NCBI GenBank assembly: GCA_028829895.1
Contig: CM054180.1
Location: 120,231,363 to 120,295,362, forward strand
Length of the DNA stretch: 64,000 nucleotides
Direction: 5' to 3'
Source: Sinotaia quadrata
Taxonomy: Eukaryota > Mollusca > Gastropoda > Architaenioglossa > Viviparidae
A model generated the notes under the pieces. That model was not told where the DNA came from. It worked only from the letters and a program-made list of their open reading frames with translations, and made no database searches. Made by a program: the position numbers and the translations under genes. How positions within the stretch are numbered: the first letter of the stretch is position 1; the number at the start of each line of letters is the position of its first letter. This document shows, in pieces, positions 16,017 to 60,100 of the stretch.

Positions 16017-16762
16017 AATGTTGTAAGTTTTGCGGCAAATGTGAAACTGCAAGAGATATCGAATCGCCGATGGAAAAGGTCGCTGAGTTAACCAATGGCG
16101 TTCGCTGGGAAAGTTCGGTGGTAAAGTTTACGTGCACTTTTGAGTATGCGCGTTGACTAAGAACTGAAGCACACGGCTGGTGGTGCAATTATTTTTTTAA
16201 ATTACCGATATGGTAGTCCGAGGATGGATGTAATAGCTTTTATGTCGTTGCGTATTGTGACAGAGGTGTGATGAGAAGAAAGTGGGGCACGTTTGCACTG
16301 ACGTTAATCTCTACTCTTCGTTGGAATCATTTTGGGAACTGAGTTCAGTCAAGAAAGACAACTCGCATATGTGTATGACGTTTATTAAAAGAAAACACTA
16401 CAACATAATAATTATGTATGACATATAGTGACGTGTGTGTGTGAAGGCTTTAGACTTATGCATTTATAAATAATATATTTTGTATTCGACTTGTATTAGA
16501 AATGTGTGGTTGGGGTTTATGAACACAGTCTATGTGATCTGATCTATAGAAATGTGTTTAAACCTGTACAGCACTTGACTGAAGAGGCACGAATGTTTGA
16601 CGTTTATAACTGATAAATGTTCATATCACTGACAGTCAGGATTTAGTATACATTAATCTAAGTTCGTGCGAGATTATACAGTTTGGTTTGAGTTAGGTTA
16701 GCTTTCCTCAACAGCACTGTGTGGAAACTTTGGAATTTGTAAAAGGTGTGTATATTTGCGCG

Positions 16763-19339: not shown

Positions 19340-22149
19340 AGAAAAAAACATTGTATTAATTGCTAATTGCATGAATCGGGATTTTCAATTAAAAAAAAAA
19401 AATATGTCCTTATCAAAACCTACAGGCCAGCAACCGGTTTATACTGAAACCACAATATAATACTGACTAGCAACTTTCATTACAATTGTAACAATATTAC
19501 ATCTTCTTTGATACTACTTTCGTGAAGTGTGAATCTAGCATCTTGTAAGCAAACCCTGTACTCGACTAATGCTACAAATAAGTAACACTACCCACAATAC
19601 ACAGACCCCGACTACTAACAGTATTACATCACTTTTGATACTACTTTTCTGTAGTGTGAATCCATCCTCAAGTAAGTAAATTCTGTACTGATCTAATGTT
19701 ACAAATAAGTAACACTACCCACAATGCACAGACCACGATTACTTACATTACATCTAACGAATTTTCTTAAAGTAAGGTGCTTGAGAATAAAAGTCTGCCG
19801 AGTTATATTCTGAGTTTTGATATGTTGAACGTGTTTTCGTTGTTTAAATTTCTTGAGTATTGTATCATGAAAATCCGGTTCTTTTCAGAGTCACTCCAGC
19901 GTATATAGTTGTATGTAATAGGTTACCACAGACACTAGACACGGTTGATTTGATACCTGTCAGTCTTTGTGCCCATAGGCCAAGGGTCTGTAGTTCCACT
20001 ACAGTACGCCTTCGGTACGCCGTTCCATCGGGGTTTGTGCTCGAAGTGCAATATTTTTTTTAATGTTGTGGCCTTCTGTGACTAACCTAGTTGATCATGG
20101 GTTGAGAGCGCGCAGAAATTTTGTTTGTAGCCGGTATGGTGTCTTTGAGTTTGTAGGTATTTTTCTTAGTAGAGGTGAATTTGTTGTAGAAGAGTTATCG
20201 CCATCGGTAGTCAGCCTGACCTTCTGTGTTTCGCGTTTGAAGTTTCTTGATTCCTATTTTGTTTGTATGTGTGTACCCTTCCCTGGCGCGTCATTAGCGT
20301 CGGTAAACCTTACAGCATGGAAGGTCAAGTGTCAAGTGTCAAGTGTCTGTGCAGGAATATGAAAGCAAGACTTTTAAACATTTACTTACATTGTTCTTCA
20401 AGTAAATAATTTTTTAAAAATATAAATAATTGTTAATTTTTATTTGATCATTGTCACGTTTTAGCTAGCAACAATAATTACGGTAATTGCATTGTATTAA
20501 GGAACTTGATTTCCTAAAAGTGATAACCGAGGCCGTTCATGCACAACAGAACATTAAATCTAGTCATATCGAGTGCATCATAATTTTATATGTCAAATTA
20601 AAAAGAAGTAATTTATTTTAATTTAGAAAACCTCAGTATATATAAATATGCCTCTTATGTTACTGAATCAAGTCTGTTTCTAATTATCGCCTAATAAAAT
20701 GGCCGCGTAATTGTCATTTGCTTGCCTATCATAGCAACAGAAGTGCATATAGCGATTGAGTCGTGACGTAGGTGGGATTTCCATGAATGGAAGGTCGTGC
20801 GTTCAAAAAGCGCAAACGCCGCGTAACGTTAGCACTATAGCAGCGAACGTTAGCTCTAGCTGTTGAACGCTCGGTTGTACGGCAAACGTTTCAAGATGGC
20901 GGAAGATATATTCAAGGCAATGCTAATTTTTGATGAGTTGACCTAGGATTTCAGTTCAATTAATCACACTGTGGTTTATATATATATATATATACTTGAA
21001 CAATATTTGTAGTAATATTTGTGCAGGCAATTTCCCAATAATATATTTGTCACCATACTCTTTATGGTTAGATGCATTTTTCAACCTTGTAATGCAAGAA
21101 CTATTAGTATTGTACTAATTAGTACAGTTAGTTAATGTATTGTAATTACACTGCAATAATATTTGTATCAGTTTATTATAACATATTAATTATATTCGTC
21201 TATTATTATTAAAACAAACATCAACTGGGTTTATTAATAATACAAATATATACTATATCTGTTGGCTGCGTGTATTATAGTTTATATATATATATATATA
21301 TAGGTCTGTACTATATTAATATAACCTTAGTGTATAATAGCAAATTACTATTACTCTGAAATTCTAAACTTAGTGTAAATTATATTTAACAAAAAAAACC
21401 TAGCTAAAATTATAATAATTAACATAATTATAATAATTAGTCTATTATAATAACTGTAGTAATAAATTATTATTTCAACTAGATTTATTAATGGATATTT
21501 AACATACATATATATAACATATATATGTTGATTACATATAGTTTTATACAGATCTGTACCAGGAGAGGGGTTGCAGCCAGTACATTGTTCCGGGGCCCAA
21601 GGGAAAATTAAAAAAAAAATGCAAATCTAAAGTTTTAAAATGAAAAACAATATTGGATATACATACTTTATACTTTGTGCGTATAGAAAAACCGCATTGC
21701 AGCCTTGTTTGACATAATCTATGAAAAAAATACATGTTTGTTGAGCTTTGTATAAGGGCCCAGACACCTTCTTTGGACCGGGGCCTTTCTGACTTTCTCT
21801 CGGCGGTCCTGACTATATTTATATGATCTTAATATGTAATAGTAAGTTATTACTTTGAAATTCTAAAGATCATATTCATGCTCAGCATTAAACAAAACAC
21901 CATATGCAAACTTAAAACAAGCCAAGAAAGACGCCATTTTGTGTTGCGCGGTGAACTAGTGCGAGCCGTTTGCAAACGTCACAAAGCGTTATCAGGAAAC
22001 GGGTCATTCAATTACGAAACTGTAGCTGTATTGAACGCAAAGCAAACTACTTAAACACTGCGCCGATCACGTGACTTGAGGCGTTACAATCCTGGCGCCA
22101 AAAAACACAAGGTCAATCACTGCATCGCGGATATACAAAACTGCTAAAC
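19340..22149. other. Intergenic region upstream of GST-3
   Basis: A more CpG-containing stretch at about 20740-20920 ends in CAAGATGGCGGAAGATATAT, whose ATG opens only a short frame. A strongly AT-rich block at about 20940-21560 has (TA)n near 20976-20994 and 21283-21302. The last ~250 bp before the GST-3 ATG are again less AT-rich and contain CACGTGA and GGCGCC; they are the likely promoter, though no core element is certain. Confidence 0.35.
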
Positions 22150-25100
22150 ATGCCGCCTAAAAGAAAACAAGCTAAACCCGCTGCATCGGGGACACAGAAG
22201 AAAAGTAAACCAAGTACGCCTTCAATCAAACTGTGCTACTTTGATTTGCGTGGTCGTGCAGAGGTCTCGCGACTTATTCTGGCATTGGCAGGCGAAAAAT
22301 ACGAAGACGTCCGGTGGGCAAGAGAAGACTGGCCTAAATACAAACCAGGTAAGAGCGCGGCAAACGGAAGACACGATGAGACAGACGAGGGTAAGAAAGA
22401 ATCTGTGGAGACAGACGAGGGCTAGAAAGAATGGGTGGCAAAACAAGAGAGCTGTTTCAGAGAGTGATATGGGACTGAAAGCAACTCCAGACAATTCAAA
22501 GTTTTCCTGACTTATTCATTTATCGCGAGTCATTCCTACCCATAATACTCATGACTGCTACACGCGGATTGAGTGACAAGAGACTAGTAGAGCCCTCGGG
22601 GTTACCGTGTTTTAGGGTCAGTGGGTCACCGATGGTTTGACTGAGCACTTCCTGATGTGTTTGCATGGTTTCAAATTGTGGCTTGAATGCGCGCTTTCTA
22701 GTCGCGGCTTTTATCATATTTTTCTTGAGATTTTGTTTAAGTGAGAGTTTGTAGCAAGCACAGCTTTCCCTGTCGAGTTTGATCAATGGTTCTTAACCTG
22801 TTTTGAATCACGGACCCTTTTGAAAATCTGGTGAGAGCTGTGGACCCCCTCACTAGGAAAATGTTCTTATAATCTTAACCAGAATATAAAAATATAGTGA
22901 ATATTTAATTTTCACTTCGGACCCCCAGGTTAAGAACCTAGAACTAGATAGTGTTAACTAAAGGCTGATAAAAGAAGTCTAGAATTTTAGTCTTATGCAA
23001 CTACTGTATATAATCGTTAACTTCTGGCTATTAAAACAGTATTTAAAAATTTTATTTGATAGAACTAGATCTTTTTAATTTTAGGCCGTGTGAACTAAAT
23101 AGTATTCACTGGAGACTGATAAAACTAGATAGTCTTTAATAGTTTATATTTAGGCTGAGAGAAAGAACTAGATACTGTCATTCAATTGTTGCTTCAAGCT
23201 AAGATATAATTTTGATTTTGAATGCATCTACTGTAAACTACAGACATGTCTTTGTGTGTGTCGATGTCTGATTCTTATGTACATGCAATGTTGTCATGAC
23301 ATTGAAACTCATGCAGTTTGCCATTGATTACCTACTTTCAGATGCACCATTTGGCCAGGCCCCTTACCTGGAGTACAATGGCGAGAAATTTGCACAAAGT
23401 ATTGCCATAGCGAACTTTTTGGCTCGAAAGTTTGGTGAGTACCATTGTCACAAGTCTGATTGGCAAACTCAGGAGACAAAAGATTTGTTACATCAATCTG
23501 TGTTGTTGTAATTATATTTATTGGCAGCAAATGAATGTGTCAAGAGTCAGAGTCAAAATAACTTGTAGCATTTTATTTTTGGCATCTGTTGTATGTTTTT
23601 GTCTCGCTTCAGCTGTTTTCATGGTGCTTATCGGAATGGTGTTGGTGTGTGGACACTCTGATGTAGTCTTTTTTGATATTTTGTCATTGATCTCCACCAC
23701 ACTGACCACACAGACACTGATACGTACACGTGATGTACAAAAAATCCTATTTGCATGGACACACAATATTAAAATCACACTGTGGTGTACCTAACCATGT
23801 ATTGACCCTGCAGACAAGTAATAACTGGTTTACATCATGTTTTAAAGTATTTGACTAGTTTTTTGATTGATAGATATTACTTCTAGTCAATTATAAATAC
23901 ATTTTCTTTATTTCTGGTGATGATTTATTTATAAAATCTGGATCCTATAGATAGATTTGAAAGCAGTAATTTTTTCAAAGGTAGGATAGTAATTGTCTCC
24001 ACTGACTAAGTGACTGACAGGACAGCATCTAAGATTTTTTCCTTTATTTTTTTTTTGTTGTTGCTGAGCTGTTCAAACAGTGTTTTCATATAATCAATAA
24101 GTGATACATTTCATTCTTGGGAGTGAATATCATTTAATTAATTAAAGGTAGAAGGAAAGAGTTATTGGCTGGTGAATGGTGACTCCTATCACTTACATAG
24201 TTACAAGGTTTATACTATAGTGGTTTCTTAGAACTTTGGAAAAATATGTCATTTGTGTTCTTTATTACATGTCAGTGTGTATTATATATTGAGCATTGCT
24301 TAGAGTATTTGGTATTTTTGCATAGTGTGAATTAATAAGTACCTGTATTGCTTAGTGTATTAATTAATGATGTTGCATATAGTGATATATTCAATGACAG
24401 TACATAAATAAGATGCCTGAATTATACACATATAATTGAGAACATCTAATACATACATTTGAAATTAAGTCCTAATTTGCATGTTTATCCTTTTGTTTTA
24501 TTTTTAAACCTATAAACTGTCTCTTTAGAAAGACAAAGTAGATGGAAAGTGGGTACATATGACTGGTAGATCAGATAAAGTTTCCACCTAGCTAAAGAAG
24601 GAATTAGTTAAAACAAGATTTTACTCTTTCCTTGTCTTTCTGTCCTACATTTCACACATATACTATACTGTATACACCACCCCTATTATTATTTAACATA
24701 TTTTATCAATTCTTAATCTTATACCAGCTGTGTCATACAGTTAAAATATATTAACATAATGCATTATAGTCTCAGTGCAGTTACTTCCCTTGAGCAGTGT
24801 CCTCTTGTAATTGATGTTGTTTTACAAGTGTTCAAAAATTAATTGAAAACGATTCATTTATGCAAAATTAAAAGCTACTGGAGCCTGTGAAGAAGTATTC
24901 AAACAGCATGGCATTGCAGCAAATTAATCTAAAGCAATGGTTCTAGACTGTTTTATAATTATGAACATCTTTCATGAGTACAGAACTTGTAATAAATTAG
25001 AGATGGTTATAATAAGAATTTAGAAAATATTTTAAAATAACAATTAACAAACAGTGATGAAAGATCACTTGTTTTAAGATTTAATTACTAAGATTAGTAA

Positions 25101-40425: not shown

Positions 40426-41434
40426 ATATATTTCTTAACTGGATTTAAACCCAGTCCTCCAAAGTACGCACATATCATACACATACACACGCATTCGCAC
40501 AAAACAAACTTAACCTTACTCTGCAAAACAACAATCTGCAAAATCTACGAGACAGATAATTCGGTGAGACATTGTATTAAACATATCACATTGTCCACAA
40601 TAGCAATTACCTCAGTGATATAAATCACGGAATGACGACAAAAATATCTTTTTACAATTGTTCACTGACGAGGAACACACTGTACAAGCTGATTACGTCT
40701 GTGCCCTTTTAACGACAATTGTAAATGATACTGTTGACACTAAAGACAATGACGAATTTTCCGTCGAGGCAAAGTACTACATCTATTATTTATCTTATTT
40801 ATCGTTACCCAGGACTTTACGGGAAGAACAACTTGGATGCTTTCCGTATCGACGAGGTCGTCCAGCTGGTGAAGGATTTACGGCTTGCCCTGGGGAAGGC
40901 TGTTTACGAGCAGGATGAGACCAAAAAGGTCTGGGACCTTTGGGACTAACAACTGTAGATATTCTTGAGTCATTGGGTGTTCATATCACGTTAGCCAGAC
41001 ATCACGGCACTTGATTAAGATCCTTGATCACTTGAAATAATCACTTGGGACTAAAACGGATCAGTTTATTTTAGGAGACATTTGGTCTGATAGAATTTAT
41101 TATTTGGACAGTTGATCTGGTAAATGTGTGGTGTTACTGGAACAGTTGGTCGTTAGTTTCAATCGAGAATTATGACTCTTCCATTTGTTGTTATCCACTA
41201 TAAACCCAGAATGCAGTGGCGGTTTGGGTTGGAGGGTAAAGTTCCGTACTTAGAGCGTTCAATTTTAATTTTTCTTCTCCAGCGATATTTTAACGCAAAA
41301 TTTTAATCATTACCCCTCCTCTTCGAACTCCAACTCCCACACCCCCACATCACCCCGCCCCACCTCACAGACCAAATAAAATTTCTGGATCCACTACAGG
41401 AGCAATAGGAAAAATCTGTTCATCGTTTGCTTGC

Positions 41435-41818
41435 AACATTATGCAAGTGAAAATTAGGCGCTATGGCCTACCCTGCAACATTATGCAAGTGAAAATTAGG
41501 CGCTATGGCCTACCCTGCAACATTATGCAAGTGAAAATTAGGCGCTATGGCCTACCCTGCAACATTATGCAAGTGAAAATTAGGCGCTATGGCCTACCCT
41601 GCAACATTATGCAAGTGAAAATTAGGCGCTATGGCCTACCCTGCAACATTATGCAAGTGAAAATTAGACGCTATGGCATACCTTGCAACATTATGCAAGT
41701 GAAAATTAGGCGCTATGGCATACCCTGCAACATTATGCAAGTGAAAATTAGGCGCTATGGCATACCCTGCAACATTATGCAAGTGAAAATTAGGCGCTAT
41801 GGCATACAGTATGACATT
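41435..41818. repeat. 42-bp minisatellite, 9 copies, in GST-4 intron 3
   Basis: Units of AACATTATGCAAGTGAAAAT plus TAGGCGCTATGGCCTACCCTGC; ATGCAAG falls at 41441, 41483 and so on to 41777. The first five carry GGCCTACC, the last four GGCATACC. The 14-residue periodic ORF is an artefact. GST-5 has a single, diverged seed of this unit at about 57587. Confidence 0.92.
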
Positions 41819-42960
41819 ATGCAAAATGACATCAAGGAATGTTGCAATATTGTCCTTCGTCTATTCACTGGATTACCTATTAGAAACAGACTTTCGTTTT
41901 TAATGATTTAAGTTTACAAGTCAAGCTCACCAACATAGGCAAATTATAATAAAATTGCTTTGGCCTTGAAAATAATTTTTCCGTTTTGGACATAAGCGTT
42001 TTGGAAAATATGGTATTTTGTAAAGTGTAGAGCAAATTGGTTTTTAAAAAATAGTTGTCATCTTATTAAATAAAAGTTGCAGTTTTTCTATTTGTTTCTG
42101 ATCGTTCTTGAGATGCACTTTATGGGTACTATTTATAACTGTTTATAAACGGACAGAGAAAGAAACACTTTTGCAATAAGCCTCACTTGCTGCTTATTTT
42201 ACATTGATCAGTTACGACTTCGCCTGTAGCTTTTTTAATTTTTATATATTATTAATGGCAGGCTGAACAGTTCCAAAAACTAGAGGACGATGAATTTCCA
42301 AAGTACTTTGGATTTCTGCAGAAACTTCTGCAAGAGAGCGGCACCGGCGTTTTTGTGGGAGACGAGGTAAGATGTGTACAGCACTAGCGCATCGACATCA
42401 CCACACATTAATTTGAAGGGTTCGGGGGTCAAATCTCATCTTGCTTGCTTTGCTGTGAATTTAGTAGCTCGAAATTTAGCAGCTTGACCCCCCCTCCAAC
42501 TCCCCTCTCCTCACGTCCTTTTGAATTTAAGTTAAAATTACAGTTTGAATGTCCAGAGAACTGGTCCGGAACTGGATTTATTGGTGCCTCATTCCAGTAA
42601 AAGCCGCGTTTAGGACCGAGTCGTATTTAATTTTTTTGCATTTCTAGTGAAATTAATTGCTTGTAAATATAGAAGTACTTGTCTGTGTTTTTTTATACAC
42701 TAAAACAGAGCAACCAACCAAATGAATTAAATAAACAGAACATATCACAAAAGTTTTATCAATAGCTATCGGTTATGCAAAATGTTTTACGATCACTGTT
42801 CCACCAACAAGAAAAAAATAAAATAAAATTACGTTTTGTAAGATCAGTAAATTAAATGCGAGGCTGACAAAATCTGATAGGAATTAAGCTTTAAAAAATT
42901 ACTAAATAAGGGATTTATACTGTTCCCATTTTTAAACAACGATATTTCACTGTAGAGCAA

Positions 42961-45128: not shown

Positions 45129-48100
45129 ATGGCGGAGATCAAGCTGTGTTATTTCGACCTTCGCGGCCTTGCAGAGGTGTCACGACTCGTGCTGGCTCTT
45201 GCCGGTCAAGAGTACGAGGATTTCAGGTGGTCAAGAGAGGACTGGCCGAAGTATAAGCCAGGTAAAAATCAATGAAAGAGATAATTGTCTGTAGAGAGAA
45301 AACTCCCCAGAATTTGACATGAAACGGCGTGTCATTATTACTGCGCTGAACATGGAGTAAGTCGTTAAGAAAAAGAAAATGATTAGAGTTGTGATTATTA
45401 TTTTGATCAGTCAGTTCCTATGATGTAAAATACTGGTGTTCTTTTAAATCTATTTTAAGCTAAAACTTGCATTGCTACATTTATCTTTTTATTTTTATTT
45501 TTATTTTGTTTGCGTGGGGTTTAAAAAAAATGAGAATGCCCATTTAATCACGGTACTTAACTATTCATAATTGTTAACTGCCAAACCTCCCTTTGTAGGT
45601 GTCGGAGAATATCCCACAATTCATATCCACCTTGTGTGTGAACGATGCTTAACAGTCCATTACTCCCGAATCTCTCTTGCGTGTGAACGTTGCTTAAAAG
45701 ATTTCTTTTGAGTACTGATTTTTTTTTTTTTACTACTTACCAATACTGCAAAGAAATGTAATTTAAGACTGTTTACAAAATGAAATATGAATAAGTTCGT
45801 TTTGTTGTTTACAAGCAATGAGAAGGTTTAACTCGAGCGTTGTGGATTTCAAGTTTAAACTCTTTACATCTGCGGCTTTAATTAAACATCTATCGGATCA
45901 CAAAGCCAGAGAGATGAAAAATGAAGGAAAGAGGTAGATAGAGGATGAGGGAGAGACAGACTGAAGCACAACACGGAGAAAAAGAGAGACAAACCATACA
46001 GAGACTGAGAGGAAAACATTAGTCAGGCAGAGCAAGAGAGGGTCTGAAAGAAAAAGGCAAACCAATGCAAATCAGAGAGAGAGAGAGAGAGAGAGACAGG
46101 CAGACAAATAGACAGGGGAAACATCGGATGGAGCCAGAGAGGTGGAGAGAGAAATAGATAAGGCCAGACAGAGGCAAACAAAACAGAGAGAGAAACACAA
46201 ACACAAACACAAACAGAAAAATATTAGAAGCAATCAATACATGTGGATGGATGGATGTACGTCAGCTTGAGAGAAAATTCACTGACAGAACGTCAAATGC
46301 TTTGTAACTGAATGGACGGAGGAAATTATGAGGAATGCTTGAAATTCTCTTGACCTTTTGCCTTTGACCGATTAGCAGCGTGTGAACACTAAAACTGCAA
46401 TTTAGCATGCCTGCTTGTTACGTTTCCAGTATTTATTTAAAGACCCTGCTTAGAATAATTAAAAGACTTTAAATATAATTAACTCTTTCTCTCATATCCT
46501 ATGCAGACTGGTTGCTCAATTTACTATTTGACTAATTAAAAGTGTGTCCTGTAGTTCAGACGACAAATTTACAAACTAATAAACTGCGAACTTTTAGCTA
46601 GATTTGAAAACAGTTAAATCCCTCTAAATTAATATGCACTCGTTATCAATCTTTCTGCTCATCCGCCCCCATTCAAATCTAAGAAGTAATCTAATTGGTC
46701 TATTGTGCATAGAAATCAACTACTAAGAGGTATTAACAAAAAAATAAGATTTAATAAAGTTTAACAAGTTAACAATAATCAAATGCAACGCGAATAGTCT
46801 AATTCTCTTGTCTTTACGCGCACATGCCGAGTTATTGTCAATCTAAATTGCCAGAAAAGTGTTCCTTTGAGATCTGTACACTTGGTTTGCACTTAGCTCT
46901 ATTCTTGTATCAATTTGGTCTCAACACTCAGTCATGCCGGTCCGTTCCCTCAGTCCCCCTTTAGCGACGCACGTGGTGCATAAGGAATGGTGTTCCCCTG
47001 TTAGTGGCTAGGAACTGGAATTTTAGCGGCATGGCCCTCAGAGTGGAATTCAACCATAGAATTCAGCTAGCTTATACAAATAAGCTAATGCAGGTGAGGC
47101 ATGGGTGAACATGAACCGACCTGTGGATGCAACGTGCTTGGATATAATTCTCAACCTAACACGTCCTACTTGGCATGGCTCAATTAAATGCGCTGAATCA
47201 AAGAGTTTTCGACCTCGCGTCGCTTACAATTAGATTTAGAAAAAATATAATCGTCTCACATGTGTTCCATTTAACAATCATGACGTATGAAGCAATAAAA
47301 TAGATACAACGTTAAATTAATGTTCATACAAAGAAGTAATTCAAACCGACAGAGCGCTTCACAATTTACAATTAAAATTACACGCAATAATTGAATTACA
47401 TGAAGAATTCATATCGAGCGCAGCATTCTGGCTCTTAGTGAATTAAAATAATATAAATTAAAGTACAAAATGGAAAAAGGGTTACAATAAATTTATATTC
47501 CATAACTTATAGGTTTTTCAGCTATTTCTCTGAACCATGCTCAAGCATATATGGAAATCATATAATACATAGCACAAATACATACTTAAACAATACATAG
47601 GCAAATACTATTAAATAAAATGATACCTTTATATGAGAAGTCGAAGGGTACCTTGATTCTCTATGGCTGTCGGCTGCCTCTCACGACCCGAGTAGCTGAT
47701 GGAATTAGCTAAAGTGTGCTCGAAGTGAGGGAGCGGAAGCGTGTAGGTACATATATAGAAAGGTATATTGCGTATCACGTGACTGTTCGCGAAGCATGTA
47801 GTTGGTTCGAGAACTGGACAATGGTCCTAAAGTTACATAACATCTTGACCTGTTCTAGAAGCACCTAGAAAAAGGAAGCTTTGAACAAAGGAGTCAAGGG
47901 TTTCAAATATTCGAATTTGAAGTAAACAAGGCTAAGTGGGTCATCAGGTCGGACATTTTTATCAGACTTGTGACACCCCCTTGCTTTTGAGGCGTTTATC
48001 TTGCCAAAGATAAAATGCCTCCTACAAATTATGTATGATAAAATGTAGAAGTCCACAATGAAGAAAATTTTACACAAAAAAAAAAATTTCAACATTCCTA

Positions 48101-51100
48101 GAAATAAAGTGTGCAACTATATTTCATATTTACAGGAAGGAATCCGTAGGGTTCAGTTAATTGGTTAAACGACATTCTATCAGTACCGGCACTTGATGGC
48201 ATCAAGCACGACTCATGTAATCTGCGCCAACATTCAAAGACCCTTTGATGTAATGAATATTTGCGTCATACTGTGTCAGAAACAAAGACCAACGCATTAA
48301 ACGGCTGTTCGTAAATTGCGCCTGTCCGAGAAAGGCCAACGGCTGGTGATCGCACTCAATGACAAAGGTTTTTCCGTACAAATAGTTTTCGAACTTTTTT
48401 ATGGCCCAAACTATTGCAAGACATTCCTTTTCACTGGTGGAATATTTCTGTTCAGTAGTTGTGAGTTTACGGCTTGCATATGCAACTGGGTGTTTGGTGT
48501 CATTGTGTTCTTGTAATAACACTGCTCCTAATCCTGTGTTGCTAGCATCAGTCCTTAACAAGAATGGTTTTGTCAAATCTGGCAGTTTAACAACTAAATC
48601 TGAAGTCAGTCTAGATTTCAGTGTGTCAAAAGCGTTTTGGCATGCATCAGTCCACACTACTTTTGTAGGCATATTCTTACGTGTCAAGTCAGTCAGAGGA
48701 CATGCAATGGCACTAAAATCTGGTACGAATTTTCTGTAGTAGTTAGCAAGACCAAGAAAACTTCTAACTTGTGTTTTTGTTAGCGGTTGTGAAGTGTCCT
48801 TAAGTTGTGCTATCTTAGCTTCACTTGGCGACATAGTTCCATGACTCAACTTGTGTCCCAAGAAGTCTAAGGAGAATTGTGCTATTTCACACTTCGTAGG
48901 GCGGGCAGTGAGGTTGGCTTGCTTTAATCTGGCTAGCACGTCTCGTAAGAGTGTCAAGTGCTCCTCCCATGTCTGGGTGCCTAGAATTAAATCATCCATG
49001 AAGTTCTCAACTCCACGTCCGTACAGTGGTTCTAACAATGACCGCATCATTTTAGAAAAAATGCTTGGAGCGTTTGAAACTCCGAAAGGCATAACTTTCC
49101 ATGTGTAGTTTCCTACTGGTGTAGTGAAAGCTAGTATGTGTCGATCAGTGTCCTTGACCTTGATTTGCCAAAAACCGCGTGACAAATCTATTTTGGTATA
49201 GTAATGAGCGTTAGCTAGCTTAGTGAAGATGAGATCCGGATCGGGAAGAGGTTCGGCACAAAACTCTGTCACTTGATTGAGTTTGCGATAGTCTACGCAA
49301 AAACGGAATGAATTATCACGTTTTTTAATCAACACGATGGGTGATCCGTAGGCACTGTCAGTCTTCTCTATGACCCCTAGATCTAGCATAGTCTTAATCT
49401 CACGTCTAACGTCATCTATCTTAGCGTGTGGCAACGGATACGGCTTCAAACGTATCGGTTTGTTGTCAGTCAGCTTCAGTGAAAATTCTATTAAGTCTGT
49501 CAACCCTGGTTTGTCTGTCAGAGTAGATGAGAACTCATTGAGCAATTTATTCACTTCTTTTTTCTGTCCTTCCGTCAAGGCGTCATTCACCCTAACGTCT
49601 TTAACAGTCTCCTCTGTCTGTAAAGGACAGTTCGGTAAAGTACCAGTGACGCAATCAGTATCCCCCTCGTCTTCTGTAACTATCGTCGCTACGACAAAAT
49701 CAGCTTGAGTGGTTTGATCCTCACGGCTTATGTACTTTTTGAGTAGGTTAACATGAAAGATTTTCTCTCTCTTTCCTGTCTGTACCTTATAGTTCAGTCC
49801 CCCTAGCTTGGCGGTAACTACAAAGGGCCCCTTCCATTTCATCTGAAGTTTGTTATGTGCTTCAGGGAGCAACAGTAACACTTTGTCGTTAACTTCAAAT
49901 TCTCTAGGTTTGGTGTGCTTATTGTAATATTCTGCCTGTCTAGACTGAGCTATCGTCAGGTTTTCCCGTGCTATCTTGCCTATAGTTTCAAGACGGTTTC
50001 TTAAGTCAGTGACGTATGTGTAAGTTGTTTTAACTTCGTCATCTGTCTTTTCATCAGTCCAAAGTGCCTTCAAAATCATCATCGGTCCGCGTACAGTACG
50101 TCCGTAAAGTAGCTCGAATGGTGAAAATCCAGTGGAAGATTGTGGCACTTCCCTATATGCAAATAGTAGGGCAGGGATGTATCTGTCCCAGTCTTTCGGT
50201 TTATCAGTGGCGAGCTTTTTAAGTGCTGTTTTTAATGTCCCGTTGTATTTTTCAATCAGACCATTTGCCTGGGGGTGGTAGGGTGTGCAAGTAAGATGCT
50301 TGATGGAAAGTAAGCGATTTACTTCCTTCATTACGTTGCCTACGAATTGACTCCCCTGATCTGTCAAAATTTCGGTGGGTATTCCAACACGACTCCATAA
50401 TCCGAAAAGGGCTTCGGCGACAGTTTCAGTATCGATATTTTTCAATGGTACTGCGTCGGCGAATCTTGTTGCGTAATCAATAGTGGTCAGCACGTATCGA
50501 TTACCTCTCGTTGATGTGGGTATTATAGGCCCAATCAAATCCATTGCTACGCGTTTGTAGGGCTCACTGATCAGTTCAGGCTCTCCTAACGGTGCGGGTC
50601 TGATTGAATTTTTAGACTGTGTTCTCTGGCATGTGTCGCAACTTAACACGAATCTACGGATATCGGCAATGATGTCCGGCCAATAAAACTCACTTGTGAT
50701 ACGACTAGTTGTTTTTTGTACACCCATGTGTGCACCAAAAAGACTCTCATGACCTAATCGTAATACGTCATTTCGTTTGGTTTGTGGAACGACTAATTGT
50801 TTCCGAAATTCGTCTCCCACTTTCGAATAGCGGTACAATAAACCCTTTTTCAGAATAATGCACGCTCTCTTATTCGAATCGTCAGTGTTGACGTCACTAA
50901 CAGGTACAGCTTGCTTGCGTAACTTGTCTAGTGTTTCGTCCTCAGCTTGTAATAATTTAATCTCGCTAACTGTTGCTTCATCTACGGCTGGTGCGGCAGA
51001 CATCGGTGCAGTTACAGATTTGTCTTTACTACTCGCTGCTCTGGTTACAGCGTTAACCAGTGGTGGTTCAGTTGAAGTTTGTTTTTTGCACGGCAAAACA

Positions 51101-54100
51101 TACTTGCAACCAAGGATCACGTCATGCGGTGAGTTTTCCATAACTGCCGCTTTGACTGTTCCTTCTACAAAGTCTGAAACAATCGAGACTTCAGCTACTG
51201 GTAAAATGTCTTGTTCGCCGTTCGCAAAGGTGACAGAGATTGTCTCCCCTGTGTAATCGGTACGGTTAACTAGTGATGCATTTACTATAGCGTCCAGCTC
51301 ACACCCTGTATCAAGCAAAGCGATTGTATCGTGACCGTTTGCCTGTACTGGTGTTCGATTCGATTTTTCCGTTTTAGGTGTATGACTTTCTACTGCGTAA
51401 ACCTTAGCTGTTTTCTTTTCAGGACATGTTCGTGAAAAATGGCCACTATCACCACAAGTGTAACATGCAAGATTCTTTTTATCTTTCTGTTTGTCGGACT
51501 TGTTTTTAGTGTCGGGTTTAGATGTTTTATCATCACGCTCGCTATGTGCCTTCCCGTCATTTTTCTTATCCTTTCGAGTCTGCGGTTCGTTCGGTCGAGA
51601 CTTGTTGTTCGCGTGTGCGTTCGAGAATTGAGAATGTGCGTCATCAAAGCGATCGGCGGCGTTGCCTATCTCCTCTAGCGTAGATTTTTCCCTTATTGCT
51701 AAGTGAATCAGTAGATCTGATTTGTATGACCCGAGAATGTGGTCCTTTATCATTTCATCCCTAAGACCTGCGTACGTCTGTGGAGTTTCAGCTAGATCTA
51801 TCCATCTTTGGAACAAGTCCGTGACGCGGCGTATGTACTGTGCGTGCGTCTCTGAACTCGCTTTTGTGGCCTGTTTAAACTTACGTCGGTATGTATCGGC
51901 TGTGAGTTTGTAACGTTTCAATAATGCGGCCTTGACTGTGTCGTAATTATCTGACTCAGAATCGCTAAGCTTATTGAATTCGTTTTTCGCACTGCCCTGC
52001 AATAATCCCGATAAATTTATCGCCCAATGTTCCGCTGGAATGCTTGTTGCTCTGGCTAATTTTTCAAACGTTTTTAAATACGCGTCTATTTGATCTTTGT
52101 TCTCATCAAATGGGACCATATTTATCTTTGGAATGATATTTTCAATTCTACTGTGATTATTTCCATCGCTAGAACGCGAATCACCACTGCTTCTGCGATC
52201 ACGGTTTGGATTAGTAAGTTCTAACTTCTTCACTTCTAATTCTAGCTGTTTTGTTTCCGCGTCTGCTGCGATGCGTTTGGCTTCTGTGTCCGCTGCGATG
52301 CGTTTTGCTTCCGTTTCTAGCTTTTTCGCTTCTGTTTCGGCTAACTTTTCAGTTTCTAACCTTTTCAGCTCGCGAGCAGCTACACGTTCTTCCCTTTCTC
52401 TTTCTTTCTCTTTTTCCGCTTTCTCTAGCTCAGTTTTGATGTAGTTCGTCAGTTCGTCACCCTGATATCCTATCATGATACCGGTTTCTTTCAGGTCTTC
52501 GATAACCTGTTTGCGATCCATTTTATTGTCTTAGCGCGCTGGCTACAATAAGAATGTATCTCGTGAATTGTGTGTTTTTAACCGTCGGCGATAACTCCGC
52601 TTATCCCGAAAATAACTTTTAGGCTGCAACCTTACAAAAATTATTTAATTTACTCAGAACACCTTCCGAAATAAATTACGCGTTAACTCTTTACACGTTT
52701 CACCTGCTTGTCACAGTGTCCGCTGTTCCAAGACTTCCGTAATGTCACGGCTCCTACCATACAACATTACACATTATATCTAGCACCCTAAATATAATAG
52801 TCCGAAGTCTGTTATTACCGATAACTCTCCTAGCTGGCGGTATAACCTTCGACTCCTCACAATGAAGTACTCAGTAACACAATACTAAATAAATCATTCC
52901 ATAATCAATATTAAACATTTAACTACGCTTAAACATATTAACATTGATTAAACATGCACGCTACTCTGCAAAAGAATACATGCACATGTCACAACAAAAG
53001 CAAAGAAAATCAGTGATACAAAAATCAAAAGAACAATTGGCAATTTCTTTTCGTTCGTTCGTTTCTAGGTTATGATACGCCCTATGTATAAAAATGTTAC
53101 AAGTTACAATTTAATACATATCAATCCCGCGACGACCCACACTTGTTACGTTTCCAGTATTTATTTAAAGACCCTGCTTAGAATAATTAAAAGACTTTAA
53201 ATATAATTAACTCTTTCTCTCATATCCTATGCAGACTGGTTGCTCAATTTACTATTTGACTAATTAAAAGTGTGTCCTGTAGTTCAGACGACAAATTTAC
53301 AAACTAATAAACTGCGAACTTTTAGCTAGATTTGAAAACAGTTAAATCCCTCTAAATTAATATGCACTCGTTATCAATCTTTCTGCTCATCCGCCCCCAT
53401 TCAAATCTAAGAAGTAATCTAATTGGTCTATTGTGCATAGAAATCAACTACTAAGAGGTATTAACAAAAAAATAAGATTTAATAAAGTTTAACAAGTTAA
53501 CAATAATCAAATGCAACGCGAATAGTCTAATTCTCTTGTCTTTACGCGCACATGCCCAGTTATTGTCAATCTAAATTGCCAGAAAAGTGTTCCTTTGAGA
53601 TCTGTACACTTGGTTTGCACTTAGCTCTATTCTTGTATCAATTTGGTCTCAACACTCAGTCATGCCGGTCCGTTCCCTCAGTCCCCCTTTAGCGACGCAC
53701 GTGGTGCATAAGGAATGGTGTTCCCCTGTTAGTGGCTAGGAACTGGAATTTTAGCGGCATGGCCCTCAGAGTGGAATTCAACCATAGAATTCAGCTAGCT
53801 TATACAAATAAGCTAATGCAGGTGAGGCATGGGTGAACATGAACCGACCTGTGGATGCAACGTGCTTGGATATAATTCTCAACCTAACACGTCCTACTTG
53901 GCATGGCTCAATTAAATGCGCTGAATCAAAGAGTTTTCGACCTCGCGTCGCTTACAATTAGATTTAGAAAAAATATAATCGTCTCACATGTGTTCCATTT
54001 AACAATCATGACGTATGAAGCAATAAAATAGATACAACGTTAAATTAATGTTCATACAAAGAAGTAATTCAAACCGACAGAGCGCTTCACAATTTACAAT

Positions 54101-57081
54101 TAAAATTACACGCAATAATTGAATTACATGAAGAATTCATATCGAGCGCAGCATTCTGGCTCTTAGTGAATTAAAATAATATAAATTAAAGTACAAAATG
54201 GAAAAAGGGTTACAATAAATTTATATTCCATAACTTATAGGTTTTTCAGCTATTTCTCTGAACCATGCTCAAGCATATATGGAAATCATATAATACATAG
54301 CACAAATACATACTTAAACAATACATAGGCAAATACTATTAAATAAAATGATACCTTTATATGAGAAGTCGAAGGGTACCTTGATTCTCTATGGCTGTCG
54401 GCTGCCTCTCACGACCCGAGTAGCTGATGGAATTAGCTAAAGTGTGCTCGAAGTGAGGGAGCGGAAGCGTGTAGGTACATATATAGAAAGGTATATTGCG
54501 TATCACGTGACTGTTCGCGAAGCATGTAGTTGGTTCGAGAACTGGACAATGGTCCTAAAGTTACATAACATCTTGACCTGTTCTAGAAGCACCTAGAAAA
54601 AGGAAGCTTTGAACAAAGGAGTCAAGGGTTTCAAATATTCGAATTTGAAGTAAACAAGGCTAAGTGGGTCATCAGGTCGGACATTTTTATCAGACTTGTG
54701 ACACTGCTCATGACTGCGCTTTGAAATGTTACAAGTATATATCTGTACACGGGCTATCTCACCGAGATAGCTGTTTAAAGGCCCCATTTCACGTGTTATC
54801 CATTATAAATCACACAGACTCACACACCAGCAAATACATATGTCCACAAATACTTACACACCGTGACTGCTGCTGGATTTGATTTATTTTTGTTAGATGT
54901 CTACGAAAGTATTGTTTATTTCTATCATTAAAGATCTATAAAGATTTCATTAACTCTTTCTATCAATAACACTAGCTTACGATTATTATATTATATATCT
55001 GTAATAGTTCTGTTTAACTCCTTCCATCAGCAAAGATCTTCAAAAGTTTTGTTTTAACCCTTTCTGCTTTAAAGATCTTTAAAAGTTTTGTTTAACCCTT
55101 TCTGCTTTAAAGATCTTCAAAAGTTTTGTTTAACTCTTTCTGCTTTAAGATCTTCAAAAGTTTTGTTTAACCCTTTCTGCTTTAAAGATCTACAGCAGTT
55201 TTACGCAACCATGTCTAGGCCATTGAGTACTGGGATGCTGCAACAAAATGGACTTTATGTCACGGACAGGCACCACAGCGAGCAAAAGATTTCTTTCTAT
55301 ATTTATTGAAATCTGGCTAAGGCCGCCTGTTGCAACAAAACCAATGCCTCACATTAAAGAAAAGTTTTCACTTTTTTTCTTAGCTTTTATTGGCAAAGCG
55401 CAAAAGTGCATTCTCATTATCTGTTTACGGTCTTAGTTCTCCCTACTCCAGCAAATGATGTAGCTGAAGTAAAATTATGGGGCCGACCTTGACATGCATT
55501 CGCAGCAACGTGCTGTAATTAAACTCATGATGTGTGAGAACGGGACAGTGGGGAAAACATCCTTAAATTAAACAAAGTGGGTTTTATTTTAGAAAACGAA
55601 ACAATAGCAATCATCATTAACTAACTAGAATTTACTCTGTATGACATGTGCCATTAGTCAACTACTTCATGTATACGTCCTATTAGCCAGTTTCTTCGTA
55701 ATATATGTGTCAATACCCAGTTACTAGGTAATATCTATGCCATTAGCCAATTACTTCCTAATATGTGTCATTAGCCAATTACTAGGTAATATACATACCA
55801 TTAGCCAATTACTTCCTAATATGTCATTAGCCAATTACAAGTAATATATATGCCATTAGCGGCTAGCCAATTACTTCCTAATATGAGTCAGTAGTCAATT
55901 ACTAGCTAGTTTATATGTCATTAGCCTAATCCTAACCAATTACTCCATAACCATTGTGACATTAGCCATTTATTTCAAACGGTATATGACATTAGCATTC
56001 GTTAATTAAGGGAAGCGTGTCCGGCCTGGGCTGTTGTTGTTCCGTTTACTTCTCTTCATGCCTGCGCATGCGTTGAAGTCTTCGTCCTTTGACGTTCTTT
56101 CCACTGAGGAAGGAGGAGGTGCGCAGTCAGGGCTTCGTGACATTAGTTAATTACTTACGTACTATATAAGGGTCACCATCCAATTACTTCATTACCCCTA
56201 TATATGTCACAAGCCAGTTACTTCGTACTAAGGGTCATTAGCCAATTACTACCTACTATATGCGTCACAAGCCAATTACTTGACATTAGTCAATTACTTT
56301 GCACTGTACATGTGACATTAGCCAATTATTTCATACCATACGTGTCGTTAACAATTACTGTGTACTATAGCTCATTAGCCAATTACGATCATACTTTATG
56401 TGTCATGTTCAGTGAGTGATCATCTTGTCTTTCATTTCTCAAGAGGCCCCATTTGGCCAAGGCCCATACTTGGAATACAACGGCAAGAAATATGGGCAGA
56501 GCATTGCAATAGCATCCTTCTTAGCACGCGAGTTTGGTAAGTACATTTCAGCCATGGATAGCTTCGTAGACCGTTTAAACATGTGAGGCATATCTCTAAA
56601 TAATTAGTTTGGTTAAAATAAAATGTTCAATCTGGTTGTCCGTGCCAGAAGACAACATTTACACATAGGGACAATTAAGCAGTTACATCATATTTATTAC
56701 TCTTGACTTATTTTATAAAAAAATACTCAAACAAAATAAAAATCTTCGTTTAGTTCGGAAGCTTTGTGTATCGATGATTGCCGAAAAGCTTAGCAGCATA
56801 GGCAGAGTAAATAGATCCATGTCTTTCCTTGATTAAATGATAATTGTAAACGATGATACATTTGATTCTAATACAATGACGATTCTCGCATCGAGACAAA
56901 GTACTACAACCGTTATCGTTACCCAGGACTTTACGGGAAGAACAACTTGGATGCTTTCCGTATCGATGAGGTCGTCCAGCTGGTGAAGGATTTACGGTTT
57001 GTCCTGGGGAAGGCTGCCCATGAGCAAGATGAGACCAAAAAGGTGCGCTCACAAACACACGCATACACGCAAATGCACACA

Positions 57082-57158
<77 letters not shown>

Positions 57159-60100
57159 GTCCAGCAATTCATTTGTTTAATCGATAAAGAACGGTTGGAG
57201 TATACCAAGGATTGCAGACTTATTTTTTTTTTAATTCACTGAATGTAGAGCTGGACAATTTCACCGGCTATTCTTTTCTCCCCGAGCTTGCTGTTATGGG
57301 GATCTGAGTGTATTAATTGAAGAGATGTCCCAGAATGCTTTTGATTCACGTGTTCTCGTTAGCGATCAATAGGATACTTGATGACGTGAAATGCATTTGG
57401 GGACTAAAGCGAAAGCCTTGTTATTTTTATATTTCTGCTCTACCGAAATTTGAATGGAAAAAGTTTTGCCATGATCCAACTTTTTCTAACTCCATCCCAC
57501 CGTCCGCTCCACCTTACTCCATGCATCAAATAAGGTCTGGATCAATCACTAGGGTAATGGGACACCTTTTCAGCTTGAGCCTACAACATTATGAAAGTGG
57601 AAATGGGTCACTATAACGCGGCGATACATCAAGTAATTTAAAGAAATGGGTCATTATTGCGCGGCGATACATCAAGTAATATAAAGAAATGGGTCATTAT
57701 AGCGCGGCGATACATCAAGTAATATAAATAAATGGGTCATTATAGCACGGCGAAGTGATGTTTTGGAAAGAAATATAAAGGAATGCTGCATGTTTTCTTT
57801 GTTCACTACTATCATCTGTTAGGGACGAATTTCACTTCGTTAAGGACCTCAGTTTCAAGATCGTATTCACAAAAGTAAACAAAGTAAAGAGGAGATGTAG
57901 CCGTTCGACAAATAGTTCGTGTCTGGATATATAATTTTTCTCAAATTTGCTACTTTGCACAGTTACGTTCAATTATTTTTAATAGTCGTTCTGTTAAATA
58001 GAAGTTGTGGTTTTGCGCTTATTTTCCCTGATTATTTAGCTGCATGTGTTTTGTAGATATTGTGGACTACAACTGAACGAATGAAGTGTTTTCACAATAA
58101 GTCTTTTCTCTATAAATTTTGTTATTTGTCAATTATCAATTCAGAGTTCTTTATGTATTTATTAATTTCTTTCTTTTTTTTTTAAATATTACTAACGGCA
58201 GGCTGAACTGCTCCAAAAACTAGAGGACGAGGAATTTCCAAAGTACTTTGGATTTCTGCAGAAACTTCTGCAAGAGAGCGGCACCGGCGTTTTTGTGGGA
58301 GACGAGGTAAGATGTGTACAGCACCAGCGCATCGACATCACCACACATTAATTTCAAGGGTTCGGGGATCAAATCTCATCTTGTTTGTTTTGCTGTGAAT
58401 TTAGTAGCTCCAAATTTAACATTTGATGTAAAAGTTACTTCCCCTTCCTCGCGTCTTCTTGAATTTAAGTTAAAATTACATCTTGAATGTCCAGAGATCT
58501 GGTCCGAAACTGCACTTTTGGGCGCTTCATTCCAGTAAAAACCGCATTTAGGACAAAGACATATTGCATTATTTTCTCTTCTTAATTAATTCACATTCAT
58601 TTATCCAGTTTGTGGCTCGCCCCCCCCCCCTCCCACCCGGAGCAGCAAATATTATTTTCTCCTCAATTAATTACACATTTATTCATCCAGCTTATGGCTC
58701 TCTCCTTCCTTAGAAACATCAAATATTATTTTCTCTTCTTGATTAATTCACATTCATTCATCCAGTTTGTGGCTCGCCGCACCACTCCTATTCCCCCCAG
58801 GAACAGCAAATATTATTTTCTACTCTTAATTAATTACACATTTATTCATCCAATTTGTGGCCCCCCCCCTCTCCTGCTGATCTTAATTAATTGTCATTGT
58901 TACGTTTCCAGTATTTCTTTATAGACCCTGCCTAGGATAATTAAGGACTTTAAAGATAATAGATTAAATTAATTCTTTTTCTCTATCCTATACAGACTGG
59001 TTGCTCAATTTATCATTTGACTAACTTAAAAATGTGTCTTGTAGTGCAGACAGCAGATTTACAAACTGATAAATTGCGTACGTTAGCTGGGTTGGAGTCG
59101 TTAAATTCCTCTAAATTAATATGCATTCGTTACGTCATTCAGCTCAATCGCCCCCATCCAATCCATGAAATAATAATTAGGTCTATTATGCATAAAAATT
59201 AACTACGAAGAGGTTTAACAATTAAAAATAAGATTTAATAAAGTTTAACAATTTAACAATAATCAAATACGAGCGCGAAAGTCTATTTCTTAATTCCGCA
59301 CGTACGTGTTTAATGTTTCTTGAGAAAGAGTGCCCAATTGTATCTTATTGAATTTTAGTCATCTGAGTGGTACTCAGCTTTATGTCCTTGTGTCGCCTGG
59401 TTTCTTGTTCCAGTCCGACCCGGTCTATCCCACTGTAGTTGCACCAGCGGAAATGCACGTGGCATACAAGGGAAACTGTCCTTTAGTTCGCCACGGGTGT
59501 ACTTGAGATTAGACCAGCATACGCCTACACGTTGACGTTGCTTTACAATGGTGGTGGACCTTTCTGGAAGAGTTGAACTCTCTCAACAGAGTTCAAACCG
59601 GCTTGTACAGGATTTCAAGGACGAAGACAAAGACAACTTGTCCAAGCTCAAAGACCGACTTTATGAGAAGTTGAAGTGTTTATCTCATCTATCACGCCGG
59701 TCTGTCCGTTCCTATACGACTCGCGAGTAGCTGACGTGGCTGTCGCGTAGCTAGTTGTATCTCCGAGTACCGGATGGATGCGTTTTACCAATATTTATAA
59801 GAAAGTATAGAGCATATCACGTGACGGATCGCGTGGCATGTAGTTGGTTCTAGAACCTAGACAATGGGCCTAAAGTTACATAACGTCCTGACCTCTTTGT
59901 TGGAAGCTTCTCCATATGAATATCACGAGAGAGCTCCAAACAAAGGAATTTCAAATCTCGATATTTGAAAAATAAACAAGTGGGTCAAACAGTCAAGACA
60001 TTTTAATCAGACTGTGACAGTCATCCAGAAAATTATGAAATGTGAAATACACCACTCGAGAACAACAATGCAACTCAAGAACTAAAAATAAATAACTCTC

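What the first reader, a model, noticed from the sequence alone, without database searches (positions are those of the whole stretch)
48202..52521. Gypsy-type polyprotein with integrase in front of reverse transcriptase (Gmr1 order)
The single ORF reads Gag, protease DTG, integrase (H591/H598/C628/C631, D661/D721/E757, GPF), then RT (FMDD) and RNase H at the C-terminus. RT and integrase look Ty3/gypsy, but the order is that of Ty1/copia. This combination is known for the Gmr1 group, first described from deuterostomes. An intact, fused, frameshift-free copy in a probable mollusc is a useful new member.
Basis: partly seen in the sequence, partly recalled or inferred. Interest (0 to 1): 0.9.

Follow-up and report, generated by a model that had tools for sequence, protein, structure and literature searches.

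The report
Young, abundant Gmr1-like Ty3/gypsy retrotransposon
This is an intact jumping gene of a known type, unusual only in having its integrase in front of its reverse transcriptase, that has recently copied itself many times in its animal host, alongside a related shorter element that encodes an unknown protein.

Summary
It is the only long frame of a complete LTR element at 46416-54703: 1,560-bp LTRs with one mismatch, 5-bp target duplication, primer slot, polypurine tract, no env.

RT and integrase are Ty3-like, in swapped order relative to Ty3. On RT/RH and IN trees the integrase-first elements form one clade that contains the window copy (SH-aLRT 99); 163 of 180 proteins examined have that order. 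Such elements are in print for fish, tunicates, crustaceans and an annelid, so this is a new member of a known kind; 0.9 interest was too high.

Beyond the finding: the genome holds 1,253 RT-core matches; in 11 copies measured the two LTRs differ by 0 or 1 base; Gag's N-terminus varies in length while the rest is fixed. A second, non-autonomous family (515 matches) shares LTR tail, leader and Gag N-terminus but encodes an orphan protein of about 980 aa. That pair is the interesting part.

The parts
46416..54703 (-). whole LTR retrotransposon, 8,288 bp
   Evidence: LTR pair, target duplication and internal ORF
53144..54703 (-). 5' LTR, 1,560 bp, TGTC...AACA
   Evidence: self-blastn and pairwise alignment, 1 mismatch to the 3' LTR
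46416..47975 (-). 3' LTR, 1,560 bp
54704..54708 (.). target site duplication AGCAG, copy beside the 5' LTR
46411..46415 (.). target site duplication AGCAG, copy beside the 3' LTR
53124..53141 (-). 18-nt primer binding slot, two bases after the 5' LTR; some other copies carry a slot that I recognise from memory as a tRNA-Pro site
   Evidence: comparison of 23 copies; tRNA assignment recalled, not tested
52522..53143 (-). 622-nt leader, containing the primer binding slot
   Evidence: 92-97% identical in 20 fetched copies
48202..52521 (-). single Gag-Pol ORF, 1,439 aa, no frameshift
52132..52521 (-). Gag N-terminal module (aa 1-130), coiled-coil-like by eye, length-variable between copies
   Evidence: 14 distinct DTG offsets among 21 copies; sequences
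51487..52131 (-). Gag capsid region (aa 131-345); no SCAN match itself, homologous to Gag of relatives of which some score as SCAN
51424..51465 (-). CCHC zinc knuckle (aa 353-366)
51103..51351 (-). aspartic protease (DTG), aa 391-473
   Evidence: (matches below Pfam's cut-offs)
49732..50790 (-). integrase: HHCC, DDE core, GPF/p58 C-terminal part, aa 578-930
48847..49329 (-). reverse transcriptase (FMDD), aa 1065-1225
48268..48654 (-). RNase H, aa 1290-1418
47976..47988 (-). polypurine tract AAAAGCAAGGGGG next to the 3' LTR
   Evidence: printed for 18 of 21 copies (window included); L017, L020 and L024 were missed there because the script read them on the wrong strand, and L017's is

Best explanation
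A complete, very recently inserted Ty3/gypsy (Metaviridae) LTR retrotransposon of the Gmr1-like clade. Shown: LTRs, target duplication, one intact Gag-PR-IN-RT-RH frame, an order shared across a clade, and many related young copies in the host genome. Inferred from established LTR-element biology: Gag-Pol is made as one protein and cut by its protease; particles package the RNA; RT starts at the primer binding slot; plus strand starts at the polypurine tract; integrase inserts the cDNA with a 5-bp duplication. The integrase-first order was inherited from one ancestor of the clade and is not a rearrangement of this copy.
For: Domain order and catalytic residues. Element limits and duplication. 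RT/RH match Ty3 (4ol8, E 4.3e-70; 7q5b chain 611-995, E 1.1e-69) and IN matches the same 7q5b chain at 1085-1450, E 1.6e-35: order reversed against Ty3. Integrase-first rows are one clade in the RT/RH tree (60 v 26 rows) and the IN tree (60 v 12 rows), SH-aLRT 99 each. An RT/RH-only query, which does not favour either order, was added; over both searches 163 of 180 proteins (window included) are IN-first, 14 RT-first, 3 show no IN. SCAN is precomputed for 82 of the 120 proteins listed (my count from the table); in frogs SCAN was found in Gmr elements only (PMC4131045, passages). Of 20 fetched copies, 11 had both LTRs in the stretch: 10 with no LTR mismatch, 1 with one; 11 of 11 with a perfect 5-bp duplication. 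Selection: the integrase piece differs from 20 copies by 23.4 synonymous v 3.0 non-synonymous codons on average.
Against: SCAN is absent from the window Gag and not precomputed for its five best hits P0001-P0005. Scanned with a loose threshold, P0003 (8.4e-6) and P0004 (1.3e-4) match below Pfam's cut-off and P0005 not at all. No named Gmr1, Mag, CsRn1 or copia protein could be placed on the trees. Trees are quick SH-aLRT trees without bootstrap; the IN tree carries a long-branch warning (Ty3, P0124_c2). Many RT-first units come from fused gene models; two of the 26 RT/RH rows labelled RT-first are from P0127, which shows no integrase, and only 12 units had a usable IN. Activity was not measured.
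Confidence: 0.9

Rival explanations
1. A private rearrangement: an ordinary gypsy element whose integrase was moved in front of RT in this copy or this host.
For: The usual gypsy order is RT before IN (recalled); Ty3 has it.
Against: 20 of 20 fetched copies and 163 of 180 proteins have IN first; one clade on two separate domain trees.
Confidence: 0.01
2. A copia element, or a gypsy/copia hybrid with a copia integrase.
For: The order matches that of Ty1/copia (recalled).
Against: Pfam matches are RVT_1, RNase H families and Integrase_H2C2, no copia RT family; IN aligns to Ty3 integrase from the zinc finger to the GPF part.
Confidence: 0.01
3. A distinct integrase-first gypsy lineage that is sister to, not inside, the Gmr1/Cigr-1 group.
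For: The window Gag and its nearest kin P0001, P0002, P0005 show no SCAN match; no named Gmr1 was on the trees; a mollusc survey lists 16 new MolGy clades, and the section read does not give their domain order (PMC6238403 section 6).
Against: Its RT/RH and IN lie inside the integrase-first clade, many members of which carry SCAN (82 of 120 listed).
Confidence: 0.08

Closest known systems
Gmr1 clade (Gmr1 of Atlantic cod and a Ciona element, as named in PMC8220671), Ty3/gypsy
   Same: Integrase upstream of RT; Ty3-like RT, IN and RNase H; Gag and Pol in one protein, as tabulated for Gmr1-4 of pufferfishes (PMC11117352, passages); SCAN-type Gag in many relatives
   Different: LTRs of 1,560 bp against 337-518 bp for pufferfish Gmr1-4; the window Gag and its nearest kin not recognised as SCAN; host probably a mollusc
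Unnamed integrase-first proteins of Littorina, Haliotis, Babylonia, Crassostrea, Diadema, Patiria and others
   Same: Same order and 50-55% identity over IN to RNase H for the named ones listed
   Different: Only P0001 (99%) and P0002 (85%) are close; neither carries an organism name
Ty3 of yeast (PDB 7q5b)
   Same: Homologous RT/RH and integrase
   Different: RT before IN
Plant TR-GAG elements (non-autonomous, Gag-coding; recalled, and seen only as a term in a search listing)
   Same: As for the second family here: non-autonomous LTR element that keeps an ORF
   Different: Here only about the first 45 Gag residues are shared; for the remaining ~930 residues no relative was found

Membership tests
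Gmr1-like clade | Integrase upstream of reverse transcriptase in one Pol | tested here: met
Gmr1-like clade | RT and IN of Ty3/gypsy type | tested here: met
Gmr1-like clade | Falls in one clade with other integrase-first elements, apart from RT-first ones | tested here: met
   RT/RH tree; IN tree; SH-aLRT 99 each, quick trees
Gmr1-like clade | Groups with the named elements Gmr1 and Cigr-1 | not testable with these tools
   no protein named so among those listed
Gmr1-like clade | SCAN-type Gag (over half of frog Gmr elements, PMC4131045, passages; so not universal) | tested here: inconclusive
   no SCAN match in the window Gag; of five relatives scanned, P0006 (3.1e-10) and P0007 (4.3e-12) pass, P0003 (8.4e-6) and P0004 (1.3e-4) fall below the cut-off, P0005 has none
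Ty1/copia | Copia-type RT and integrase | tested here: not met
   RVT_1 and Integrase_H2C2, no copia RT family among 13 matches
LTR retrotransposon | LTR pair, target duplication, polypurine tract, primer slot | tested here: met
   primer tRNA itself not identified

The most novel reading that the evidence does not exclude
The Gmr1-like family drives a second, non-autonomous family (515 pattern matches) that has kept Gag's N-terminal module and carries, instead of recognisable capsid, nucleocapsid, protease and Pol, an orphan protein part of about 930 residues. That protein is under weak selection and may enter the helper's particles through the shared module and favour the satellite's own RNA: a satellite retrotransposon that makes its own protein, with the length-variable Gag N-terminus as the contact surface.
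Probability: 0.3. Interest if true: 0.65.

Novelty: new member of a known kind. Interest (0 to 1): 0.42.

Why it matters
The order itself is known, so the window element only extends a clade. What could matter is the setting: a 984-Mb genome in 26 contigs with 1,253 matches to the family's RT core, copies young enough to have identical LTRs, one protein part that varies in length while the rest keeps its spacing, several primer-slot forms side by side, and a second family with an ORF of its own. This makes particle sharing between a helper and a satellite element testable in an animal.

Tried and rejected
Rejected: copia or hybrid origin; private rearrangement; an env gene: between ORF and 3' LTR lie 226 bp, and the longest minus-strand frame there has 83 codons; self-priming of the primer slot from the own LTR: best ungapped match 11 of 18. 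Led nowhere: relatives in viral contigs (2 stretches matched a pattern, none confirmed); Gag in solved structures (two matches at E 0.4-0.8, taken as chance); relatives of the satellite ORF (none at E 0.001 among 7,999 scored candidates; no Pfam match above a cut-off); a paper on a recent Gmr1 burst in gastropods (the 10 listed of 81 papers are on other subjects, by title); the tRNA gene for the window-type primer slot (not completed).
Full report
What is there. The ORF at 48202-52521 on the minus strand is one open frame of 1,439 codons. Base shuffles of the element never gave a frame above 199 codons in 200 trials. Pfam reads it as zinc knuckle, aspartic protease (below cut-off), integrase zinc finger, integrase core, integrase C-terminal part, reverse transcriptase and RNase H, in that order.

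The element. Limits are 54703 to 46416 on the minus strand: 8,288 bp, LTRs of 1,560 bp with one mismatch, TG...CA ends, AGCAG on both sides. The leader is 622 nt, the 3' untranslated part 226 nt, with AAAAGCAAGGGGG before the 3' LTR; apart from the polyprotein the longest frame in the element has 141 codons, on the other strand.

Relatives and order. A search with residues 560-1430 gave 3,652 proteins at E 0.001 or better among 7,999 scored candidates; the best 120 were listed, and 120 of 120 have integrase before RT. That query spans both domains and so favours this order. A second search used RT and RNase H alone; 120 were listed, 59 of them new. Of 180 proteins in hand (179 hits and the window), 163 are integrase-first, 14 RT-first and 3 without a recognised integrase. 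The 14 bear fish (4), frog (4), pseudoscorpion (5) and algal (1) names; many are fused gene models with several units. Where an integrase-first protein carries an organism name, it is a mollusc or an echinoderm; most rows carry none. Yeast Ty3, the best solved relative with both domains, has RT at 611-995 and integrase at 1085-1450.

Trees. On RT plus RNase H, 60 integrase-first rows (a subsample) and 26 rows labelled RT-first (25 units and Ty3; two of them from P0127, which shows no integrase) separate by one branch with SH-aLRT 99, the window inside the first group. On integrase, 60 and 12 rows do the same, again 99. P0134, P0135, P0155 and P0159, of odd architecture, were left out. These are quick trees; the IN tree was flagged for long branches. 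The order is therefore most simply an inherited trait of a clade.

Gag. SCAN is precomputed for 82 of the 120 proteins (counted by me in the table), but for none of the window's five best hits P0001-P0005. In frogs SCAN was found in over half of Gmr elements and in no other group there (PMC4131045, passages); a review states that SCAN derives from a Gmr1-like Gag (PMC3424704, passages). The window Gag shows no SCAN match; of five relatives scanned, two pass Pfam's cut-off, two fall below it and P0005 shows none. The window Gag is 42% identical to P0003 Gag across that region.

What was known. Gmr1-like elements are reported from cod and Ciona (as cited in PMC8220671, Discussion), from crustaceans as the first in protostomes (PMC3587641, passages), from an annelid (PMC8220671, passages; also PMC8556966, passages), from pufferfishes (PMC11117352, passages) and frogs. 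The mollusc survey describes the Gmr1 order in its introduction and lists Cigr-1 and 16 new clades in molluscs; Gmr1 itself occurs once in its text (PMC6238403, passages and section 6). The first description by Goodwin and Poulter is recalled, not seen.

The genome. The window lies at G000:C4:120231363-120295362 of a 984-Mb genome in 26 contigs. With the RT/RH piece, 105 of 6,178 candidates were scored; all 105 are 100% identical in protein and lie on C1, and 97 of them have an open frame of 1,435 codons or more, so this is a floor set by the scoring limit. Pattern counts, each with up to 2 mismatches and a control of 0: RT core 35-mer 1,253; window-type LTR-primer junction 854; LTR tail 26-mer 6,020. 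If all 1,253 were full length they would make up about 1% of the genome; this is an estimate, not a count.

Youth. Of 20 copies fetched on C1, 11 had both LTRs within the stretch: 10 with no mismatch, 1 with one, all 11 with a perfect 5-bp duplication of their own; the other 9 were cut by my choice of coordinates. Between copies, coding parts other than the Gag N-terminus are 94.6-100% and LTR parts 83-98% identical to the window, and two copies (L020, L028) show no match to the middle LTR piece, so several sublineages have been active. Four-gamete site pairs are common in each of five pieces examined (74 of 210 in the capsid piece, 122 of 300 in integrase), which suggests template switching or conversion between copies.

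A variable Gag end. In 21 of 21 copies the distances protease-integrase and integrase-RT are fixed, and the offset of DTG from the start of the open frame takes 14 values. By inspection the length change lies in the charged, coiled-coil-like stretch of Gag residues ~25-110, in short in-frame units. A paper search for such variation listed two papers on other subjects; this is one search of one library.

Primer slots. The slot after the LTR exists in several forms: the window form in 14 of 21 autonomous copies, a form that I recognise from memory as a perfect tRNA-Pro site in 3, an intermediate in 1 (L022) and a 23-nt form in 3 (L017, L020, L026). Which tRNA primes the window form was not settled.

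A second family. Among the first 100 LTR tails on C1, ten pairs lie 5.4-6.1 kb apart without an RT or primer-junction hit. Two such copies (L029, L030) share the leader (83-85%), the LTR tail (75-76%) and the polypurine end (87%) with the window element but gave no match to capsid, protease, integrase, RT or RNase H pieces. They have LTRs of 1,702 bp (0 mismatches) and 1,684 bp (1 mismatch) and perfect 5-bp duplications. Their single long ORF has 981 and 969 codons. Its first ~45 residues are homologous to Gag's N-terminus (scores 94-106 against at most 50 in 500 shuffles each); for the rest no relative was found. Of these ten copies, chosen by LTR spacing alone, 6 have the whole frame open and 4 are shifted. 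dN/dS over 36 pairs of nine of them (L038 left out for its short frame) runs from 0.38 to 0.76 with median 0.49; in the middle third three pairs exceed 1. This is constraint, but weak. In a genome search 104 of 910 candidates were scored, best first, and all 104 are open across the 400-residue piece; a 38-mer counts 515 matches. That the window family mobilises it is an inference from shared LTR tail, leader, polypurine end and duplication length; a separate helper with more similar LTRs is not excluded.

Verdict. As a finding it is ordinary for the clade; the score is raised for the young, mosaic, partnered state of the family in this genome.

Noticed in passing
L029 (G000:C1:15549450-15557150), L030 (G000:C1:17778400-17786050): Second, non-autonomous LTR family with the same leader, LTR tail and polypurine end, an ORF of 981 and 969 codons that starts like Gag and is otherwise without relatives found; 515 pattern matches in the genome.
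   Followed up: partly
window 52132-52521 and L009-L028: Gag N-terminal coiled-coil-like stretch varies in length in frame (14 DTG offsets in 21 copies) while the rest of the polyprotein has fixed spacing.
   Followed up: partly
window 53124-53141 and L009-L030: Primer binding slot exists in five forms among 23 copies, one of them apparently a perfect tRNA-Pro site and one (L022) an intermediate.
   Followed up: partly
window 58898-59894: Relict LTR pieces in the same orientation as the element (minus strand), 83-85% identical to its LTR.
   Followed up: no
window 15795-16127 (-) and 22075-22425 (+): Two open frames with weak, sub-threshold matches to the N-terminal domain of glutathione S-transferase; possibly first exons of neighbouring GST genes.
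   Followed up: no
window 41294-41911 (+): An open frame made, by eye, of tandem copies of a 14-residue unit (CNIMQVKIRRYGLP), that is a DNA tandem array.
   Followed up: no
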